This document shows, in pieces, positions 583 to 43,957 of a stretch of DNA of 64,000 nt (positions within the stretch are counted from its first letter, which is position 1; every line of letters begins with the position of its first letter). This DNA comes from Halobacteriovorax sp. GTDB taxonomy: Bacteria; Bdellovibrionota; Bacteriovoracia; Bacteriovoracales; Bacteriovoracaceae. The position numbers and the translations under genes are program-made. The notes below the pieces were generated by a model. That model searched no databases. It was not told the origin of the DNA and saw only the letters and a program-made list of their open reading frames with translations. The DNA lies in contig PBIO01000014.1 of NCBI GenBank assembly GCA_002720865.1, positions 1,115,793 to 1,179,792 of the forward strand, in the 5' to 3' direction.

Positions 583-1494
583 ATGAGAAGCCAAAAACTG
601 ACACTGACACTAATGATGGTGGCGTTCCTTTCTTTCTCCTGTGTGGAGGAAACCCCAGAAGAGGATTGCACCAAAACTAATGAACCCTCAACCCAGCTGG
701 TTGCCGGATCGGACTCACTTGAGAATGACTCCAAGTGCGAAACTGACGATGACGGCGGCGTGGATGATGACCAAGGAAATGATGATGGTAATGATGGCGG
801 TAACGACGATGTTACTGATATTGATGCCCTTAATGCACCTTGGAACAAAGAAGGTACTTCGATTGTTATCGATGCTTACGAGCAGAACCGAATTGATTGG
901 AACAAGATGGCAGCGGATACCAAAATGGTGGGAGTTATCCACCGATCTAGTATAGGAATGCGAGTAGACAAAAAGTATGTCGAAAGAAAGAATATCGCAA
1001 AAGAGCGAGGTTATTTATGGGGGGCCTATCATTTAGGTCGCCGTGGAAACACCATCGCCCAAGCTGACCTTTTTCTCTCCTTAATTGACGGAGAAGAAGA
1101 CACCCTTATGGTTCTTGATTTAGAGGACACATCATCAAGTAGCTTTATGAGCTTAGATGAAGCCGAAGTTTTTATGGACTATGTGTATGAAAAAACCGGT
1201 CGAATTCCAGTGGTCTATGCAAATCACAGTACGACTAAAAAACTAAACACTAAGTTTAAAAACAAGCCCATCTTCCAGCAGTCAAAGCTATGGTATGCCA
1301 GGTTTAAATCGAGAGTGACTGATTATCCTACTGGGATCTGGCCAAATTATTTTCTATGGCAGTTCTCAAGTGAGATCAACTGCTCAAGAACTGGATCCTG
1401 TCTTTACAATGTACCTGGTACATCGAGTGATATGGATATAAATGTTTTTAACGGCGATTTTACTGCCTTACAGGCCCAGTGGAATAACGACTAG
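583..1494 (+). CDS. Lipoprotein with glycoside hydrolase family 25 (lysozyme-like) domain
   Basis: The N-terminus has a hydrophobic segment ending in the lipobox LSFSC (Cys20), so an exported lipoprotein is expected. Residues about 55-80 are an Asp/Gly/Asn-rich linker (DDDGG, DDDQGNDDG). The rest, about 92-300, follows the GH25 pattern: the first-strand Asp97 in IVIDAYEQNRIDW, GYLWGAYHLGRRG, QADLFL, and the Asp-x-Glu pair Asp179/Glu181 in VLDLED, which in GH25 enzymes carries the catalytic acids. Family members cleave the MurNAc-GlcNAc bond of peptidoglycan. Target (own wall, or that of another cell) cannot be read from sequence. The acidic linker may bind calcium. Confidence 0.85.
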   Translation: MRSQKLTLTLMMVAFLSFSCVEETPEEDCTKTNEPSTQLVAGSDSLENDSKCETDDDGGVDDDQGNDDGNDGGNDDVTDIDALNAPWNKEGTSIVIDAYEQNRIDWNKMAADTKMVGVIHRSSIGMRVDKKYVERKNIAKERGYLWGAYHLGRRGNTIAQADLFLSLIDGEEDTLMVLDLEDTSSSSFMSLDEAEVFMDYVYEKTGRIPVVYANHSTTKKLNTKFKNKPIFQQSKLWYARFKSRVTDYPTGIWPNYFLWQFSSEINCSRTGSCLYNVPGTSSDMDINVFNGDFTALQAQWNND

Positions 1495-1524
1495 GCTAAG
1501 TGCCAATTTTTACTGGTAATTAAA

Positions 1525-1570
1525 GGGACTTACCCCATATAAAGAAACCCCTTCTTATATGGTAAGTCCC
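1525..1570 (+). terminator. Imperfect hairpin, possible terminator of the GH25 gene
   Basis: GGGACTTACC-cc-ATATAA pairs with TTATATGGTAAGTCCC, giving about 16 pairs with a two-base bulge and a short loop. TAATTTT follows. The T tract is short, so termination efficiency is uncertain. Confidence 0.5.
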
Positions 1571-1662
1571 TAATTTTACACCTCCATAAATTTTCTTTTC
1601 ATGGACATTCAGAACTGCCGCATAATGAGGATTCAAGAATCTAACCCCTGCGGAATAAAATT

Positions 1663-1917
1663 ATGAAATGGATTATCTTTGCTTGTTTTGTTGTTATTAG
1701 TTTTACGGCCTTAGCGGCAGAGGGAGATAAGCCCAAAGTAGTAAAAAAGAAGAAGCTCAACTTCAGAACTTTGGCTTCGGTATCGAATGATGTCCAAAAA
1801 GAAGTGGAAACTAGGTATAGGGATAATATGCTTAGGGAAGAAGAGCAAAGAATTCTTAAGGATGAGGAAGCGTGGCTTAAGACTTTAGAGTATATGGAGA
1901 AAAATAGTCACGAATAA
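1663..1917 (+). CDS. Small exported hypothetical protein, charged and helical
   Basis: The 84-residue product starts with a clear Sec signal (MKWIIFACFVVISFTALAA, cleavage probably after ALAA). The mature part is Lys/Glu-rich and probably helical: VVKKKKLNF, then VQKEVETRYRDNMLREEEQRILKDEEAWLKTLEYMEK. I do not recognise a family. It stands alone between the GH25 gene and a convergent protease and has its own terminator. An RBS-like GCGG occurs shortly before the ATG. Confidence 0.65.
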   Translation: MKWIIFACFVVISFTALAAEGDKPKVVKKKKLNFRTLASVSNDVQKEVETRYRDNMLREEEQRILKDEEAWLKTLEYMEKNSHE

Positions 1918-1948
1918 AAAAGCCCCGTTTCCGGGGCTTTCTTTTTTT
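1916..1948. terminator. Strong bidirectional Rho-independent terminator
   Basis: AGCCCCG-tttc-CGGGGCT has a GC-rich 7-bp stem flanked by A-rich sequence on the left and TTTCTTTTTTT on the right. It separates the small exported protein from the convergent S8 protease and can serve both strands. Confidence 0.9.
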
Positions 1949-3158
1949 ACTTTAGATATTTAACTAAATTGATATGTCCTGTTTCAACTTTGGCGTCCCA
2001 AAGGTCACTCTTATTCACAGTTGCTTTCATATTGGCCATGGCCTCAGATCCAGACATTCCAGCTGAAAGACCTCTAGCAAGAGCTCCAGCAACAAGAGGA
2101 GTGGCCATTGAAGTTCCACTCATATTTCTCCATCTATTGTTTGGAATAGTTGAGTAGATATTGCTACCAGGAGCAGCTACAGCAACAGATTTAACACCGT
2201 AGTTTGTAAATCCTGAAACACCTTCATTAGTCGTTGAAGAAGCAACAACAAAAAGATGCGATAGACCTGTGTATCCAGCAGGAACGATTTTCTCTGTTTC
2301 AACAGTATCGATTCTATCGTCATTATTCTTTCTTTCGTTTCCAGCAGCAGCAACAAAGATCACATCTTTTTCACCGGCCCAAGCAATAGCTTCTTTAAGC
2401 ATATTAGATGCATCTTGATCCCAGTAACGAGTCCAAGAGCTATAAAGTCTCCAAGAATTCGTTAGAATCTTTGCTCCGTTATTAACAGAGTATTTAATAG
2501 CTTCAACGGCGTCAGTCATAAAACTTTTTCCTTGAGAACCAATAAGTCTAACGGCCATAAGCTTTACATGAGGAGCAACACCGCGAGCATTACTTGTGGC
2601 GTGTTTCGTGGCAGCTACAATACCTGCACAATGAGTTCCATGTGATCCACCATCCATTGGGTCGGCGTCTTTGTCGGCAAAATCATAACCGTGAACGTCA
2701 TCTACATAACCGTTTCCGTCGTCATCGATTTGATTTCCTGGAATTTCATTTTTATTAGTCCACATTCTTGGCTTTAGGTTGTTGTGATTATAATCAACAC
2801 CTGTATCTAGAACAGCAACGATAACAGAGCTTCCACGAGTAGGAGTTGGGAGCTTATCGTACTGAAGAGAGTCAACATGCCAACCAGTAGCAGCGGTTAC
2901 TTCCTGAGTATCATTTTTTGGAAGATAAATTTCCATGTCGCGGAAAACTTTTTCTGCTTTTACAACAGACTTAAGCGACTTGGCGTCCATCCCTTCAACG
3001 ACAACATACTTATTGTTGTTAAATGTAAAACTCTTCTTAAGAGTTAGGGACTTCATTTCAGTTAGGGCTTTCATATCTTGTGGATTTTGAATAACCATTC
3101 TATCAGCGAATGCTGAGGTCGATAAAAGGACCGTCATGGCCACGATAATCTTCTTCAT
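1947..3158 (-). CDS. Exported subtilisin-like serine protease (family S8)
   Basis: A signal peptide (MKKIIVAMTVLLSTSAFA) is followed by a short inhibitor-I9-like propeptide (about 40-80) and the S8 catalytic domain (about 105-400). The triad is visible: Asp118 in VAVLDTGVD, His173 in GGSHGTHCAG, Ser350 in NMSGTSMATPLVAG. The oxyanion Asn274 lies in AAAGNERKNND. The insert DDDGNGYVDDVHGYDFADKD between Asp and His is common in S8 enzymes of Gram-negative bacteria and may bind calcium. An AAGGAAG ribosome-binding site precedes the ATG. An AAGTACTT palindrome lies about 110 bases upstream. Expected to be secreted and broadly proteolytic. Substrate unknown. Confidence 0.93.
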   Translation of the reverse strand: MKKIIVAMTVLLSTSAFADRMVIQNPQDMKALTEMKSLTLKKSFTFNNNKYVVVEGMDAKSLKSVVKAEKVFRDMEIYLPKNDTQEVTAATGWHVDSLQYDKLPTPTRGSSVIVAVLDTGVDYNHNNLKPRMWTNKNEIPGNQIDDDGNGYVDDVHGYDFADKDADPMDGGSHGTHCAGIVAATKHATSNARGVAPHVKLMAVRLIGSQGKSFMTDAVEAIKYSVNNGAKILTNSWRLYSSWTRYWDQDASNMLKEAIAWAGEKDVIFVAAAGNERKNNDDRIDTVETEKIVPAGYTGLSHLFVVASSTTNEGVSGFTNYGVKSVAVAAPGSNIYSTIPNNRWRNMSGTSMATPLVAGALARGLSAGMSGSEAMANMKATVNKSDLWDAKVETGHINLVKYLK

Positions 3159-3266
3159 AAAACTTCCTTGTTTCGGTTAAATAATTCTTAAGGAATTTTA
3201 TGAATCAGGTTTTGCCGTGACAATCAAAGGGTGTGAATGCAAGAAAATATGAGGTGTAAAACACTC

Positions 3267-3274
3267 AAGTACTT
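3267..3274. promoter_or_regulatory. AAGTACTT palindrome in intergenic DNA
   Basis: Eight-base palindrome AAGTACTT, upstream of the S8 protease (minus strand) and just past the dsbA-like gene. The same octamer recurs in other intergenic regions of this window (9803, 21784, 36071, and AAGTACTC at 50267). Function unknown. Confidence 0.3.
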
Positions 3275-3281
3275 CCTAATA

Positions 3282-3932
3282 TTACTTACTTAATTCACTT
3301 CTGATTAAAGCAAGTAGTGGCTCATACCCAAATTGCTGTAGTTTCTTGCCATTTACAAAGAATGTTGGAGTGGCACGTACACCAAGTGTTTGTGAATCCC
3401 TCATGTCTTGATCAATAACTTTTGGAATCTCTTCTGAGCTCATATCACGTTTTAGCCTGGCAACATCTAGACCTTGGACAGCATTTAAAAAGCCCCAAAG
3501 TTTTTGAGGTTGAGGATTATGATGACTTCCCCAGGCAGGCTGAGATTTAAAAACCATCTCTAATGTTTCCCAGAAGAGATTCTGTTTTCTTGATGCTTCT
3601 AAAATTCCAATAACGTATTTAGAGTTTCCGTGAAAGGGAACATAACGAACGACTAATCTAATTTGTCCTTTATGATCTTCCATAATCTTTTTAACGGCAG
3701 GATAAAAAGCACGGCAGGCTTCACATTCAGGGTCCAAAAATTCTACCAGATAAACTTTTGCGTCTTCCGGTCCCATTGTTGGAGAGTGAGGTCTAACAAA
3801 AGTTTCCGCATTTTCTTCAGCAAGGAAACCATACTTGGTTTGCTGTGCTCTTTGGTAAAAGAAAACGGCTAGGATAAAACCAATGATGATAAGGACTGAA
3901 GTGGCGATTACTGTGATTTTTTGTTTGTTCAT
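3282..3932 (-). CDS. Membrane-anchored DsbA-family thiol:disulfide oxidoreductase
   Basis: One N-terminal membrane anchor (about 7-26) is followed by a thioredoxin-fold domain with the redox motif Cys70-Glu-Ala-Cys73 in FLDPECEACRAFYP and the cis-proline loop VRATPTFFVNG (Pro189). The helical insertion between the two matches DsbA/Thioredoxin_4 proteins. The product should catalyse disulfide formation in periplasmic proteins. It is the last gene of a minus-strand operon, ten bases after a DsbB-like gene, so the two probably form an oxidase pair. Many exported proteins nearby contain several cysteines and are plausible clients. Confidence 0.9.
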   Translation of the reverse strand: MNKQKITVIATSVLIIIGFILAVFFYQRAQQTKYGFLAEENAETFVRPHSPTMGPEDAKVYLVEFLDPECEACRAFYPAVKKIMEDHKGQIRLVVRYVPFHGNSKYVIGILEASRKQNLFWETLEMVFKSQPAWGSHHNPQPQKLWGFLNAVQGLDVARLKRDMSSEEIPKVIDQDMRDSQTLGVRATPTFFVNGKKLQQFGYEPLLALIRSELSK

Positions 3933-3942
3933 AAATAGAATC

Positions 3943-4365
3943 CTAACGTTTTAATTCTCGATTGCAAAGAAAGAGTAATCCCGCAATAAGGCTAAAGGCA
4001 ATTAATGAAAGTAGAGGAATAGTTATAAAGCCCCAGTCTAAATAAACAGTCGAACAGGAGACCCCTTCCATGCAAGGAGTGGCATTCTCAGGAACGATTT
4101 CCCAGTGCAATAGATTATGCCAAAGAGCAAAGGCCCAGCCTATTCCCACAAGGGGAGAGGAGAGTTTAATTGCTACCGGTGTAAGCGGAAACAGGGCCAT
4201 CATAAATATGGCCACTAAAGGATACATGGCAATTCTTTGGTACCAGCACATGGCACAAGGGGGAAATTCCATGACTTCAGAAAAGAAGAGCGAGCCTGCC
4301 ATAGAGATAGCAGCGACAATCCAGGCCATAAAAAGTAATATCCACGCCTTTTGATTTTCTTCCAT
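3943..4365 (-). CDS. DsbB/BdbC-family quinone-linked disulfide bond protein
   Basis: Four membrane helices (about 8-28, 44-62, 70-86, 112-134). The first periplasmic loop carries Cys37-Ala-Met-Cys40 (PPCAMCWYQR) and the second carries Cys98 and Cys104 (ATPCMEGVSCS), the two pairs expected for electron transfer from DsbA to quinone. WYQRI after the first pair is a hallmark of the family. The length, 140 residues, fits BdbC-type proteins. Translation starts two bases after the stop of the O-antigen-ligase-like gene, and the partner dsbA-like gene follows. Confidence 0.9.
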   Translation of the reverse strand: MEENQKAWILLFMAWIVAAISMAGSLFFSEVMEFPPCAMCWYQRIAMYPLVAIFMMALFPLTPVAIKLSSPLVGIGWAFALWHNLLHWEIVPENATPCMEGVSCSTVYLDWGFITIPLLSLIAFSLIAGLLFLCNRELKR

Positions 4366-4367
4366 AA

Positions 4368-6107
4368 CTAAAGCCCTTTTAGCTTATTCTCAATATAGAT
4401 TAAATCTTGATCTAAGGTCATATAGTCAGGGTTTAATTTCTTAGCCTTTAAAAGCATTTCTTTTGCTTTTTGATATTGGCGGATTTCTTCGTAAATCTGC
4501 GCTTTAATTTTATAGGCTCTTGGTATGTTAGCAGAACCTTCCAAAATCTTGTCAAGATTCTGTAAAGCTTTATCATATTCTTTATTTCGAGTTAACCAGT
4601 CGGCATAGTTCTCAAGGGCACGGGGTCTTTGGGGTTGCGCCTCAATAATTTTTGGGTATTCAGAAACCATGAACCTTGGAAACTGAGTTTTATACCTTTC
4701 AAAGCGAGGTAGATTTTGATTTAAAGTGGCTTTCATTTGTTTATTAAGCTGCCTCATCATACCTGCTCGATCTAAGTAGGAGGTCTGATTCATATACTCA
4801 TCCCAAGGCTTTCTAAAATTTTCATTATTCACAATATCAATTCTAACTTTATTAATAAGTTTGATTTGAGAATACTGTTTAAACGAGACGAAAATTAGAA
4901 CCAACGCAAGAGCGAGCTTTAGGCCTTTATAAGGCAATAGATTTGGGTTGAATTTATAAATAGCTTTGTCACTAAAGAGAAATAGGACATATAAAGTTAA
5001 GATACTTGGGTCTGGGTAATAGGGCTGAACCATCGAGTAGCTAAGTGTAAATATAAAGAAGCCAAGCCAGGCCCCTCTTTGATTTTTTTCTTTTTGGAAA
5101 ATCTCTTTAAGGATAAAAAAGATGATGGCCCCAAAAATGATAAGACCAATTAAACCAAATTCACCCATGATATTAAAAAGCACAGAGTGAGCATTGTCAT
5201 TCCACTCTAAATCTTTTCCTAAAGTGGGCGTATAATTGTACCAATAACCTTGAATAAGACCATTGATCCCATAGCCTAAAATTGGTTTGGCCAAGAACGA
5301 ATCCCAGGCTCCTTGCCAGACCCCTAGTCTTACAAATTTAGTTGATCTTTCAATCATATTTGAAACGATTGAGTTTTGGCTGAGAAAGTACTGAGCGCTT
5401 AGGGCAATAATACCTGCTAGCATAGCCCCAAGTGAAATCTTAAAGGTCTTTTTATCTGCCATAAGAGCAAAGGCGATAAGGCCTAGGATTACACCGCCAA
5501 GTGAGGCTCTTGAACCTAGATAAATAAGGGTCACAAAGCAAAGAGCGTGAATAAAGTAATTAAGATATTTTTTCTTTCCATCAAAAATATGTCTAAAAAT
5601 TAAATTCACAAAGATAGTTGATCCCACCCAATAGGCCAGGGGGTTTGGATTTCCCATAAGAGCAGTTTCTCCAGCTTTTGGAGAGACAAAGAAAACTTTA
5701 AAGAGAACGATGAGGCTCATTAAGGAACCACTTGCAATAAATACGGCGGCTAAGAAATCTTTAGTTATCCTAGCTTCTTTTAAAGTTAGACTACCTATAA
5801 CGATGGCCAGATAAAAAATAATTCCCGTTCCTCTCCAAAAAGATCCAAAGAGCGCTAGGGGCATATCGCTAACCCAAAAAAGAGAGAGAATACTAAAAAT
5901 TAAAAGGGAGAAAAAACCGACTTGAATTCTTCCGAGCTCAACTTCATTATTTTCGTCACTAATAAATAAAGATCCAATAAGCCCAAGACCGATTAAAAAT
6001 TGAAATAAAATTACCTTTGGATAAATAAAAGGTAGGGGGATTCCTGAAATGGAAAAAAATGGAATAAAGAAAAGGCATAAGAGCCAGATTTTAAAGAAAT
6101 ATTGCAT
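4368..6107 (-). CDS. O-antigen ligase/polymerase-like membrane protein with TPR tail
   Basis: About ten or more hydrophobic helices fill residues 1-420. The central stretch with GSRASLGGVILGL and the large loop KPILGYGINGLIQGYW ending in NDNAHSVLFNIMGEFGLIGL matches the Wzy_C (O-antigen ligase-like) domain. After the last helix, residues about 470-575 look like two or three tetratricopeptide repeats (ALENYADWLTRNKEYDKALQ, IPRAYKIKAQIYEEIRQYQKAK). Such proteins join or extend surface glycans, and some are protein O-oligosaccharyltransferases, so the acceptor is open. It heads the operon with the DsbB and DsbA-like genes, an unusual partnership. Confidence 0.8.
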   Translation of the reverse strand: MQYFFKIWLLCLFFIPFFSISGIPLPFIYPKVILFQFLIGLGLIGSLFISDENNEVELGRIQVGFFSLLIFSILSLFWVSDMPLALFGSFWRGTGIIFYLAIVIGSLTLKEARITKDFLAAVFIASGSLMSLIVLFKVFFVSPKAGETALMGNPNPLAYWVGSTIFVNLIFRHIFDGKKKYLNYFIHALCFVTLIYLGSRASLGGVILGLIAFALMADKKTFKISLGAMLAGIIALSAQYFLSQNSIVSNMIERSTKFVRLGVWQGAWDSFLAKPILGYGINGLIQGYWYNYTPTLGKDLEWNDNAHSVLFNIMGEFGLIGLIIFGAIIFFILKEIFQKEKNQRGAWLGFFIFTLSYSMVQPYYPDPSILTLYVLFLFSDKAIYKFNPNLLPYKGLKLALALVLIFVSFKQYSQIKLINKVRIDIVNNENFRKPWDEYMNQTSYLDRAGMMRQLNKQMKATLNQNLPRFERYKTQFPRFMVSEYPKIIEAQPQRPRALENYADWLTRNKEYDKALQNLDKILEGSANIPRAYKIKAQIYEEIRQYQKAKEMLLKAKKLNPDYMTLDQDLIYIENKLKGL

Positions 6108-41146: not shown

Positions 41147-43408
41147 GTGAAGAGAGTCATAAAAATCTATATTTTAATCCTTAGTCTTTGGACTTCCTCA
41201 ATTGCTTACTCAATGGAAGGCCTTGAAACTCAGACTAGGTACCAGTCTCTTTACAAGGCCTATAGGCTAAATTCAAAGCTAGATCAGCAAATTTCAAACC
41301 CAACCAATAAGGAAGAAATCTTATCTACTTTGAAAGAAGTAAAATCTGATTGGAATAAGATTAAGGACACGAACCTAGGAAAAAAAATCTTAGGTAAGGC
41401 CACTAAGCTTAGGAAGATGAAGATAATTTTAGATGGGTTTAATAAGTGTTTAGGGGATGGGGACAATGAGAAAATTCTTGCTAGCTCAATCCTAAAGGCC
41501 ATTGAGGCAATTCCTGCTGACAAGTTTATAGAAAAATCTAATTGCCTTGAGGGTGTGCTCGCTGAACTGGTTGTCATGGACGATGAGAAGATACTCAATA
41601 GCTTTGCCCCTCTTGATCATGTTTATAAAAGACAGCAAGAAAAAGACTATCAGGAATTGGTTGAAACCAGGTGGGAAAAAATAATTAAAGGTGAAAGCCC
41701 AGAAGAAGTCGATGCTCTAACGGAAAAGATTGAGACAATTGATGATCAGATTCTAGAAGACGGAGAAAAAAAGAAATCAGCCAAATTGGCACTAAGAGAT
41801 AAGCTTTATAAAAAAATCCGAAAGCAAATGGTACATATGCATGGGATGTTTAATTACCTACTTGAGGGTAAAAAACCAAGAAGTGAAAAAGCTAAAATAG
41901 AAGAAACCTTAAAGAAGGCCTGTCCTGGTTGTGAAGAGTTGGAAATTAAAGAGCACCGTGAATCGTTAAGGGAGAGTATCAATGCCCTTAAGTCCCATAA
42001 AGTAAAACCTATAAATACAGAGAGATTTAGAAATAGAGTTCAGAACAATATGATTGATCTGGCAAAAACTGCTTATAAAATTGAAGAGAGAAGAATCTAC
42101 GATGAAAATGGTAAGAGGATCGAAAGAAAAACCCCCAATGAAGATTTAAGTGAAAATCGAATTAATTATAAGTTTAATCCTGGTTCAAATATTGTCACGG
42201 AAAGAGAACAGGCCACGGAGGCAAGAAGAAGGTTTATAGCCAAAAAACGTGAATTACAAACAACGGAGTATGGTCAACTGGCAAAGCTAGGTATAGTCCC
42301 GAACTTGGATCATGTAGCTCTTGGTTCTGTAGAAGAAAAAGATGCCAGTGGCAAAACTATCTTTCGCATGACCTTTCGTTCTTGCCCAGGGGGGCAAGAG
42401 TGTACAAATTTATTTGAAAAAGAACCTGAGAATCCTTTTCAGCTTGGACGAAAGCTTGGTGAAACCTTTGGAATGAAGGATTTTGACCTAACTAAATTCA
42501 AAAAAGAGAGACTAGGCAGCATCGAAGATGCCATGGCTAACTTTAAAAAACTTTACGATAAGGGAAGCCTAGATGAGCTATTAGACAAACTCATTATGAA
42601 TAATCCAGTAACAGCAGGTGAACTATTAGCAGAAAGTCCAAAGGAATATTTGCAATTATACTGCGAGAGAATAAAGCTTATTGGAAAAGATAAAGACTTT
42701 GATGATACCTTGAAATCAGCTTATCTGAATATTACAGCTGCTTTAATTATTGGTGGCTTTGTTTTTATGGGACCTATTGGAGCTGCACCTCTTGCTGGAA
42801 AAGTGCTAATGGGTTCCTGGTATGCACTTACAGGAGTCAGTGCTTACTTTGGAGTCAAGGCTTATCAAAATGAAGATTTTGCCAAAGCTTCTTGTTATTC
42901 GGGAACTGGTGATAAAACTAATTGCGCGCAAATCGATGAATATTATACGGATAAAAAATACGCCATCCTTTTTGGCGTAATGGTTCCAGGCTCAGATTTA
43001 TTAAGAATTGCTGATGCGGCCACAAGAGCAGCTGGAGTAGGCTTTAGTGTTAAAAGAACTTTTGATACGGCCATTACAGTTAGGGGGCGGGTTCTAACCT
43101 TTAAAAGTCAGGGTGAGAATATTGTTGATGAGGCGGTTCAGTATCAAGCTGAAAATGGAATAAAAGAAGTCTTAAACTTAAGCGATGAAGAATTGAATCA
43201 GTTACCTGAGTCTGAACGTAAAGAGATAGTGGGTATTATTCAGGAAGTATATGAAAAAGGTGGAGAGCGGGGAGTGATGGATCTGGTTCTTGCCATACGT
43301 ACCATTAAAGATCTTGAAGAAGAGGGTCAGAAGGTTGAAAAGGAGCTAAGTGGTAAGGCACTCCTTGATATGGCCCGTCGACTACAGCATCAATACGACT
43401 CTAAATAA
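41147..43408 (+). CDS. Large exported hypothetical protein
   Basis: The GTG-started product of 753 residues begins with a signal (MKRVIKIYILILSLWTSSIAYS). The first 350 residues are mostly helical and charged (KEVKSDWNKIKDTNLGKKIL; RWEKIIKGESPEEVDALTEK). Cys clusters occur at CPGCEELE and SCPGGQEC. A hydrophobic region at about 525-575 (LNITAALIIGGFVFMGPIGA and onward) could cross a membrane. The last 150 residues are again helical. No family recognised. It may act in the periplasm, or be delivered to another membrane; both are speculation. Confidence 0.7.
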   Translation: MKRVIKIYILILSLWTSSIAYSMEGLETQTRYQSLYKAYRLNSKLDQQISNPTNKEEILSTLKEVKSDWNKIKDTNLGKKILGKATKLRKMKIILDGFNKCLGDGDNEKILASSILKAIEAIPADKFIEKSNCLEGVLAELVVMDDEKILNSFAPLDHVYKRQQEKDYQELVETRWEKIIKGESPEEVDALTEKIETIDDQILEDGEKKKSAKLALRDKLYKKIRKQMVHMHGMFNYLLEGKKPRSEKAKIEETLKKACPGCEELEIKEHRESLRESINALKSHKVKPINTERFRNRVQNNMIDLAKTAYKIEERRIYDENGKRIERKTPNEDLSENRINYKFNPGSNIVTEREQATEARRRFIAKKRELQTTEYGQLAKLGIVPNLDHVALGSVEEKDASGKTIFRMTFRSCPGGQECTNLFEKEPENPFQLGRKLGETFGMKDFDLTKFKKERLGSIEDAMANFKKLYDKGSLDELLDKLIMNNPVTAGELLAESPKEYLQLYCERIKLIGKDKDFDDTLKSAYLNITAALIIGGFVFMGPIGAAPLAGKVLMGSWYALTGVSAYFGVKAYQNEDFAKASCYSGTGDKTNCAQIDEYYTDKKYAILFGVMVPGSDLLRIADAATRAAGVGFSVKRTFDTAITVRGRVLTFKSQGENIVDEAVQYQAENGIKEVLNLSDEELNQLPESERKEIVGIIQEVYEKGGERGVMDLVLAIRTIKDLEEEGQKVEKELSGKALLDMARRLQHQYDSK

Positions 43409-43420
43409 GTGAATTTATAA

Positions 43421-43442
43421 TATTTGCACAGAAATGCAAATA
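43421..43442. promoter_or_regulatory. ArsR-type operator 1
   Basis: TATTTGCA-N6-TGCAAATA, a perfect palindrome with 8-bp arms, 42 bases before the arsR start. It shares the core TTGCA-N6-TGCAA with operator 2. Confidence 0.65.
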
Positions 43443-43457
43443 TAGTTCTTGAAACGA

Positions 43458-43473
43458 TTGCATATTCGTGCAA
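43458..43473. promoter_or_regulatory. ArsR-type operator 2
   Basis: TTGCA-tattcg-TGCAA, same core and same 6-base spacer length as operator 1, ending 11 bases before the arsR start codon. Centre-to-centre distance is 34 bases, about three helical turns, so two dimers could bind on one face. Confidence 0.65.
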
Positions 43474-43483
43474 GTATAATCTT

Positions 43484-43792
43484 ATGAAAGAAAGAGATTT
43501 TAAAAAATTAACAAACCTTTTTAAAGCCCTCGCGGATGAAAATCGCTTAACGATGCTTTCGTATATTTGCCAATGCCAAACAAAAGGCAGTCGTGCAAAT
43601 GTGGGAAGCTTGGCCAGTTGTTGCGATATTGATTTTTCGGTAGTGAGTCGACACCTATCGAAATTGAAGTCTGCCGGAGTGCTAAGAGCTCAAAAAGAAG
43701 GAAAGGAAGTTTTTTACAATCTTGAAGGCAAAGAAATTGCCAAGCAATTGCGCGCTCTTGCTGATTTTATCGAAAAAGCTAACTGTTGTTAG
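43484..43792 (+). CDS. ArsR-family metal-responsive repressor
   Basis: Start at the ATG at 43484; the in-frame extension to 43424 would run through both operators. The 102-residue protein is a winged-helix ArsR/SmtB member: FKKLTNLFKALADENRLTML, then CDIDFSVVSRHLSKLKSAGVL (recognition helix) and VFYNL (wing). Six Cys come in three pairs: Cys29/Cys31 (CQC), Cys46/Cys47 just before the recognition helix, and Cys101/Cys102 at the C-terminus. These are likely thiol ligands for a soft metal or arsenite. It precedes a Cys-rich micropeptide. Confidence 0.9.
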   Translation: MKERDFKKLTNLFKALADENRLTMLSYICQCQTKGSRANVGSLASCCDIDFSVVSRHLSKLKSAGVLRAQKEGKEVFYNLEGKEIAKQLRALADFIEKANCC

Positions 43793-43805
43793 TATTGGAG
43801 GAAAA

Positions 43806-43925
43806 ATGAGTAAGCAAGAAAATAAGGAAAGCTGTAGCTGCACATGTTGTGGATGCACATGTAGCAAAGAAAATATTTCAGCTTTCTTGAAACACTTAGC
43901 AGACTTCTTTGATAAGAAGGATTAA
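43806..43925 (+). CDS. Cys-rich 39-residue micropeptide (metallothionein-like, ArsR-tail mimic)
   Basis: A strong GGAGG precedes the ATG by four bases, so translation is well supported. Six Cys at 10, 12, 14, 15, 17 and 19 (CSCTCCGCTC) form a compact symmetric metal-binding knot. Residues 24-37 (ISAFLKHLADFFDK) align without gaps to residues 85-98 of the upstream ArsR (IAKQLRALADFIEK): seven of 14 are identical and several more conservative. That segment is the C-terminal helix which in ArsR proteins helps form the dimer. The peptide may therefore bind the repressor. The next 6 bases lead into a strong hairpin. No known family recognised. Confidence 0.8.
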   Translation: MSKQENKESCSCTCCGCTCSKENISAFLKHLADFFDKKD

Positions 43926-43931
43926 AATTAT

Positions 43932-43957
43932 GCTGTCTGGGAACAATCCCAGACAGC
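43932..43957 (+). terminator. Perfect 11-bp hairpin closing the arsR/micropeptide unit
   Basis: GCTGTCTGGGA-acaa-TCCCAGACAGC, 11 perfect pairs with a four-base loop, six bases after the micropeptide stop. Only a weak T-containing tail (TCTATT) follows, so it may act as terminator or as an mRNA 3' end stabiliser. Confidence 0.7.

What the first reader, a model, noticed from the sequence alone, without database searches (positions are those of the whole stretch)
43806..43925. Cys-rich micropeptide whose tail mimics the C-terminal helix of its co-encoded ArsR repressor
Directly seen: a 39-residue ORF with a strong GGAGG site, six Cys in ten residues (CSCTCCGCTC), and a tail ISAFLKHLADFFDK that aligns gap-free to the ArsR tail IAKQLRALADFIEK (7 of 14 identical, plus S/A, K/R, D/E, F/I). 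Established: in ArsR/SmtB proteins the terminal helices build the dimer interface, and thiol pairs sense metal. Inference: the peptide could heterodimerise with the repressor, either delivering or stealing metal, or acting as a dominant-negative off-switch. It would be more than a plain metallothionein. I know of no named system of this kind.
Basis: partly seen in the sequence, partly recalled or inferred. Interest (0 to 1): 0.8.

Follow-up and report, generated by a model that had tools for sequence, protein, structure and literature searches.

The report
Metal-repressor operon with Cys-rich helix peptide
A bacterial metal-sensing repressor is encoded together with a tiny cysteine-rich protein whose tail resembles the repressor's own last helix; the pair is conserved across many related bacteria, was not found described in the papers searched, and may be a self-contained metal or arsenic buffer that talks back to its own switch.

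Summary
In all 20 genomes of the phylum (369 searched) that carry this CC-type ArsR, a 25-53 aa Cys-rich ORF follows at once; in 17 it ends in a helix like [IVLF]AxFLRHLAEFFEK. A profile of those tails picks the ArsR C-terminal helix (alpha5) as best register in all 20 ArsRs, and in the window's genome ranks it above all 611 background ORFs; alpha5 of other ArsRs in these bacteria does not match. Tail codons are under purifying selection. The operon is bicistronic: TTGCA-N6-TGCAA operators, probably leaderless arsR, peptide, hairpin. No other operator-like site examined in the 4.9 Mb genome sits at a plausible metal gene, so the peptide looks like the repressor's only output; the genome has no acr3 pump. 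Most likely this is an ArsR-controlled thiol peptide that buffers arsenite or a soft metal, with an alpha5-like helix that engages a dimerisation surface. Contact with ArsR is not shown: own pairs are no more alike than swapped pairs, and three loci keep only the Cys part. Closest known: ArsR/SmtB-metallothionein pairs and, mechanistically, SinI-SinR. New variant of a known kind.

The parts
43424..43439 (.). operator copy 1, TTGCACAGAAATGCAA (TTGCA-N6-TGCAA inverted repeat)
   Evidence: exact match; same repeat upstream of arsR in nearly all 20 orthologous loci
43458..43473 (.). operator copy 2, TTGCATATTCGTGCAA, between the -35-like TTGAAA (43449-43454) and the -10-like TATAAT (43475-43480)
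   Evidence: the promoter is my reading by eye: the sigma-70 scan with 16-18 nt spacing did not list it
43484..43792 (+). arsR, 102-aa ArsR/SmtB-family repressor with CxC at the end of alpha2, CC at the end of alpha3 and a terminal CC; no Shine-Dalgarno, probably leaderless
   Evidence: NCBIfam NF033788 65.9 bits, cut-off 55; AlphaFold model mean pLDDT 89.8; upstream sequences
43727..43783 (+). ArsR alpha5 helix (residues 82-100), which the peptide tail resembles
   Evidence: AlphaFold secondary structure; start of the helix aligned with CzrA and SmtB
43797..43801 (+). Shine-Dalgarno GGAGG of the peptide
   Evidence: sequence; purine-rich GGA-type site before the peptide in the 20 loci
43806..43925 (+). 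39-aa Cys-rich helix peptide
43833..43862 (+). Cys cluster CSCTCCGCTC (residues 10-19), predicted disordered
   Evidence: AlphaFold pLDDT about 50
43875..43916 (+). alpha5-like tail ISAFLKHLADFFDK (residues 24-37), predicted helix 21-36
43932..43957 (.). hairpin GCTGTCTGGGAACAATCCCAGACAGC, probable end of the operon
   Evidence: -20.1 kcal/mol; a hairpin follows the peptide in 18 of 20 loci, mostly with a T run; here the T run is weak on the + strand

Best explanation
A self-contained, autoregulated two-gene module. ArsR sits on two TTGCA-N6-TGCAA operators over its own promoter. When its thiols bind a thiophilic ligand (arsenite-like metalloid or soft metal) it leaves the DNA, and the operon makes some more ArsR (no ribosome site) and much peptide (good ribosome site). 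The peptide's CC and CxC thiols buffer the ligand. Its C-terminal helix, derived from or convergent with ArsR alpha5, packs onto the alpha1/alpha5 dimerisation surface of ArsR, which would let the peptide take metal from the repressor or titrate it and so set the threshold or speed of the switch. Shown: conserved gene pair, conserved operators and hairpin, purifying selection, tail-alpha5 likeness specific to this ArsR lineage. Inferred: the ligand, the buffering, the contact with ArsR.
For: 20 of 20 CC-type ArsR loci have a Cys-rich ORF directly downstream; none of about 16 other ArsR loci inspected the same way did. Tail profile: best register is alpha5 in 20/20 ArsRs and the window ArsR outranks all 611 background ORFs; hhalign 89.7%, E 1.8e-6. 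Specificity: alpha5 of other ArsRs of these bacteria scores at background, while the closest CC-lineage relatives without a peptide (G338, L092) do match, so the ArsR helix motif is the older one and the peptide the copy or mimic. The divergent G095 peptide even ends like an ArsR (ALRKLAKSIENCC). Only own-operon operators among plausible sites in 4.9 Mb. Arsenic hints: in G055 the module lies about 0.45 kb from a merR-arsC-acr3-arsH cluster; the CC-type ArsR of L092 is followed by an arsC-like frame; close structure matches of the ArsR model include two As(III)-responsive ArsRs (6j05 Z 14.0, 6j0e Z 13.0, with 2oqg at Z 14.8). Correlated divergence of tail and alpha5.
Against: Own pairs are not more alike than swapped pairs (p 0.72). 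G017, G009 and G262 have Cys-rich ORFs without the helix, so the Cys part can do without it. The peptide helix has conserved Phe at positions 4 and 11, where ArsR alpha5 is variable, so it may bind something else. No complex could be modelled. The ligand is unknown; acr3 is present in only 4 of 20 genomes.
Confidence: 0.4

Rival explanations
1. Plain ArsR-controlled metallothionein-like peptide whose helix only pairs with itself: a dimerisation helix shared with ArsR that makes a two-chain thiol cluster, with no contact to ArsR.
For: Repressor-metallothionein pairs are known (SmtB-SmtA, BxmR-BmtA, AzuR-NmtA; PMC8790569). Own-pair similarity is no higher than swapped. The peptide helix is more hydrophobic than ArsR alpha5 (mean 0.22 vs 0.00 on the Eisenberg scale), as a free self-pairing helix would need. 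Cys-only versions exist.
Against: Self-pairing alone does not explain why the helix keeps the L, R, A and D/E residues of alpha5 of this ArsR lineage rather than being any coiled coil, nor the correlated divergence.
Confidence: 0.35
2. Redox module: the adjacent Cys pair on ArsR alpha3 forms a disulfide under oxidative stress, as in RexT, and the peptide is a thiol buffer or relay.
For: RexT is an ArsR-SmtB dimer with a vicinal Cys40-Cys41 on alpha3 that senses H2O2 (PMC8960804); the window ArsR has an invariant CC at the end of alpha3; 7txm, which I remember as RexT, is among the sequence matches.
Against: RexT controls a thioredoxin, not a Cys-rich peptide; the pair seems to sit at another place of alpha3 (not verified); arsenic neighbours at two loci.
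Confidence: 0.12
3. The helix targets the membrane or an unrelated partner such as an efflux pump, and its likeness to alpha5 is convergence of amphipathic helices.
For: Strong amphipathicity (mean moment 0.69).
Against: Net charge of the tail near neutral (+0.7); 611 ORFs with their amphipathic helices and alpha5 of other ArsRs do not match; no transporter next to most loci.
Confidence: 0.1
4. Toxin-antitoxin-like pair in which ArsR controls a small toxic peptide.
For: Two genes, autoregulated, patchy, with varying neighbours.
Against: The ArsR is a metalloregulator by its curated model; the peptide is Cys-rich and not a membrane peptide; Cys-only variants are kept.
Confidence: 0.03

Closest known systems
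SmtB-SmtA, BxmR-BmtA and AzuR-NmtA (ArsR/SmtB repressor plus bacterial metallothionein)
   Same: An ArsR/SmtB repressor controls a small Cys-rich protein; BxmR-BmtA is an operon (PMC8790569).
   Different: No Pfam or NCBIfam metallothionein match; no alpha5 His/Asp zinc site in this ArsR; the peptide carries an alpha5-like helix, which I know of in no metallothionein.
SinI-SinR of Bacillus subtilis (works like, if the helix binds ArsR)
   Same: SinI binds the repressor SinR as a heterodimer and disrupts its multimerisation (PMC6123443). That SinI is a small neighbour-encoded protein resembling the SinR multimerisation helices is from memory.
   Different: Other repressor family; no Cys cluster and no metal link in SinI (from memory); binding is proven there, not here.
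RexT
   Same: ArsR-SmtB fold, adjacent Cys pair on alpha3, alpha1/alpha5 dimer interface (PMC8960804).
   Different: Regulates thioredoxin, no Cys-rich peptide; position of the pair probably differs.
ArsD arsenic metallochaperone (from memory)
   Same: Small protein with vicinal Cys pairs that handles As(III) and can act on transcription.
   Different: About 120 aa with its own fold, works with ArsA; no family match found for the peptide.

Membership tests
ArsR/SmtB metalloregulator | curated family score | tested here: met
   NF033788 65.9 bits over cut-off 55
ArsR/SmtB metalloregulator | alpha1-4, beta wing, alpha5 fold | tested here: met
   AlphaFold mean pLDDT 89.8; 2oqg Z 14.8 rmsd 1.2 over 95, 6j05 Z 14.0 rmsd 2.7 over 96
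ArsR/SmtB metalloregulator | inverted-repeat operator at its own promoter | tested here: met
   TTGCA-N6-TGCAA repeats in orthologous loci; DNA binding itself not tested
SmtB/CzrA zinc sensors | DxHx10HxxE/H site on alpha5 | tested here: not met
   no His in alpha5; motif as given in PMC8960804
E. coli-type ArsR | CxCxxC on alpha3 | tested here: not met
   NVGSLASCCDID holds CC only; motif as given in PMC8960804
Rv2640c-family ArsR (NF041413) | equivalog cut-off 155 bits | tested here: not met
   46.4 bits
RexT redox sensors | adjacent Cys pair on alpha3 with thioredoxin partner | tested here: inconclusive
   CC present at the end of alpha3, residue alignment to RexT not made; no thioredoxin gene recognised beside the module
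Bacterial metallothionein | match to a metallothionein family model | tested here: not met
   no metallothionein match in Pfam or NCBIfam; only a weak Zn_SUZ12 hit
Bacterial metallothionein | binds metal through Cys clusters | not testable with these tools
   4-11 Cys per peptide
SinI-type antirepressor | binds the repressor's own dimerisation element | not testable with these tools
   complex modelling not available

The most novel reading that the evidence does not exclude
A bacterial microprotein that joins a thiol metal-binding head to a copy of its repressor's dimerisation helix, so that it docks on ArsR and directly exchanges metal with it or breaks its dimers: a post-translational feedback loop inside a metalloregulator operon.
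Probability: 0.35. Interest if true: 0.82.

Novelty: new variant of a known kind. Interest (0 to 1): 0.6.

Why it matters
ArsR-family repressors are generally thought to answer to their ligand alone. A co-encoded thiol peptide with the repressor's own dimerisation helix would add a built-in partner that could reset or sharpen the switch, and would be a ready module for metal biosensors. It also shows a conserved gene of under 55 codons that none of the family libraries used here covers.

Tried and rejected
Single-pair BLASTP of the two window proteins: no signal. Tail-specific matching of own pairs: rejected (p 0.72). Recent duplication of the arsR 3' end at DNA level: 17-26 of 39 bases identical, no sign of recent copying. 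Search beyond the phylum: 398 genomes of the phylum of L046 (a Betaproteobacterium) gave nothing at E 1e-18, without a positive control; plasmids gave only distant ArsRs; viral contigs gave L092 for ArsR and nothing for the peptide. Wider regulon: the near-match operator sites I examined lie inside coding sequences or at no plausible metal gene. The tree does not settle gains and losses of the tail. No paper on such a pair was found; the library lacks most subscription journals.

Full report
What is there. The ORF at 43806-43925 encodes MSKQENKESCSCTCCGCTCSKENISAFLKHLADFFDKKD, 13 nt behind the stop of a 102-aa ArsR (43484-43792) and with a GGAGG ribosome site. The ArsR is over the curated cut-off of the ArsR/SmtB metalloregulator model (65.9 vs 55 bits). 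A genome of the same genus (G002) has the contig of a Halobacteriovorax MAG, so the window is most likely from a Halobacteriovorax-like bacterium of the Bdellovibrionota.

Conservation. A profile of this ArsR finds 20 of 369 genomes of the phylum at E below 1e-36, with a wide gap to the next at 1e-22. These ArsRs share CCxxDxSxVSRHL, mostly a CxC at the end of alpha2, and mostly Cys at the very end. All 20 have a Cys-rich ORF of 25-53 aa directly behind arsR, overlapping it by up to 8 nt or separated by up to 21 nt. Seventeen end in the helix motif; G017, G009 and G262 have only the Cys part. About 16 other ArsR loci of these bacteria, inspected the same way, have no such ORF in that place. 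Among 97 relatives no convincing peptide was found away from an ArsR. Tail codons show pS 0.31-1.04 against pN 0.00-0.22 in eight pairs of genomes, so this is a translated, selected gene.

Is the tail likeness real? From the window pair alone one could not say. With the family one can. Sliding each tail along its own ArsR, the C-terminal register is first of 85-113 in 17 of 17 cases; a profile of the tails chooses that register in all 20 ArsRs and scores the window ArsR above each of 611 ORFs from 800 kb of the same genome. The tails were cut out with a motif, so this test is slightly favourable to the claim; the unguided profile-profile alignment gives the same register with 89.7% probability and E 1.8e-6. 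It is not a trait of ArsR alpha5 in general: alpha5 of other ArsRs from these bacteria scores at background, but the two closest CC-lineage relatives without a peptide (G338, L092) match. So the helix motif seems older in ArsR, and the peptide carries the copy or mimic. The peptide of the divergent G095 ends ALRKLAKSIENCC plus a short tail, as ArsR tails do, which favours common descent. The ArsR tree does not decide how often the tail was gained or lost.

What the ArsR tail is. The AlphaFold model (mean pLDDT 89.8) puts residues 82-100 in alpha5, and alignments to solved CzrA and SmtB agree for its first half. The best structure matches include two As(III)-responsive ArsRs, 6j05 (Z 14.0) and 6j0e (Z 13.0), beside 2oqg (Z 14.8). 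In the ArsR-SmtB dimer RexT the interface is built by alpha1 and alpha5 (PMC8960804). The peptide model is disordered over the Cys part and a helix at 21-36 with pLDDT about 78.

Operon and regulon. Nearly all loci have one or two TTGCA-N6-TGCAA repeats just upstream of arsR; in the window they are 43424-43439 and 43458-43473. The arsR start lies a few nt behind a -10-like box with no ribosome site, so the message is probably leaderless, whereas the peptide has a good site. A hairpin follows the peptide in 18 of 20 loci. In the whole 4.9 Mb genome the exact operator occurs five times: twice here, twice inside genes, once in a phage-like region. The closest near-matches I examined lie inside genes or at no plausible metal gene. 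So arsR and the peptide seem to be the whole regulon.

Ligand. Arsenic is hinted, not shown: in G055 the module is next to merR-arsC-acr3-arsH (acr3 by curated model, the others read from sequence), and L092 has a CC-type ArsR followed by an arsC-like frame. Yet only 4 of 20 genomes have acr3, and the window genome has none. The alpha5 zinc site and the CxCxxC arsenic site are absent. The vicinal CC on alpha3 also recalls the H2O2 sensor RexT.

Mechanism. I think it most likely that the peptide buffers the ligand that ArsR senses and that its helix engages a dimerisation surface. Whether that surface is on ArsR or on a second peptide is open. For ArsR: specificity to this ArsR lineage, and correlated divergence of tail and alpha5 (partial Mantel r 0.51, p 0.0004; simple r 0.49 when three divergent rows are left out), with the caution that phylogeny was only roughly removed. 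Against: own pairs are no closer than swapped ones (p 0.72), the helix has extra conserved Phe residues, and three loci do without it.

Known or new. ArsR-type repressors that control metallothioneins are known (PMC8790569), and a small antirepressor that breaks a repressor's multimer is known from SinI-SinR (PMC6123443). I found no description of the two ideas joined, nor any family model for the peptide. I file it as a new variant of a known kind; it would deserve more if contact with ArsR were shown.

Noticed in passing
L152 (G055:C291) 1441-4016; L153 (G046:C79) 3114-5743: Arsenic operon merR-arsC-acr3-arsH led by a MerR-type rather than an ArsR-type regulator with a Cys-bearing C-terminus; conserved in two genera.
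   Followed up: partly
window 43449-43484 and the 19 orthologous loci: arsR appears leaderless, with the operator over the -10 region in one layout and in the spacer in another; two operator copies lie about 32-41 nt apart.
   Followed up: partly
L026 and L080 (G009, G262): Divergent branch: ArsR with CLCxCC and a peptide of 30-33 aa with 11 Cys and no helix.
   Followed up: partly
L025/L156 (G095); L084/L157 (G338): In G095 the module is followed by a SAM-dependent methyltransferase gene (weak similarity to ArsM among others); G338 also has a methyltransferase-like gene behind its ArsR but no peptide.
   Followed up: partly
L092 (IMG/VR contig IMGVR_UViG_3300049744_000047): CC-type ArsR followed by an arsC-like frame at the end of a contig classed as viral; may be host DNA or an arsenic gene pair on a phage.
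   Followed up: no
window 41147-43408: 753-aa protein with a signal-peptide-like start and no convincing family match, just upstream of the module.
   Followed up: no
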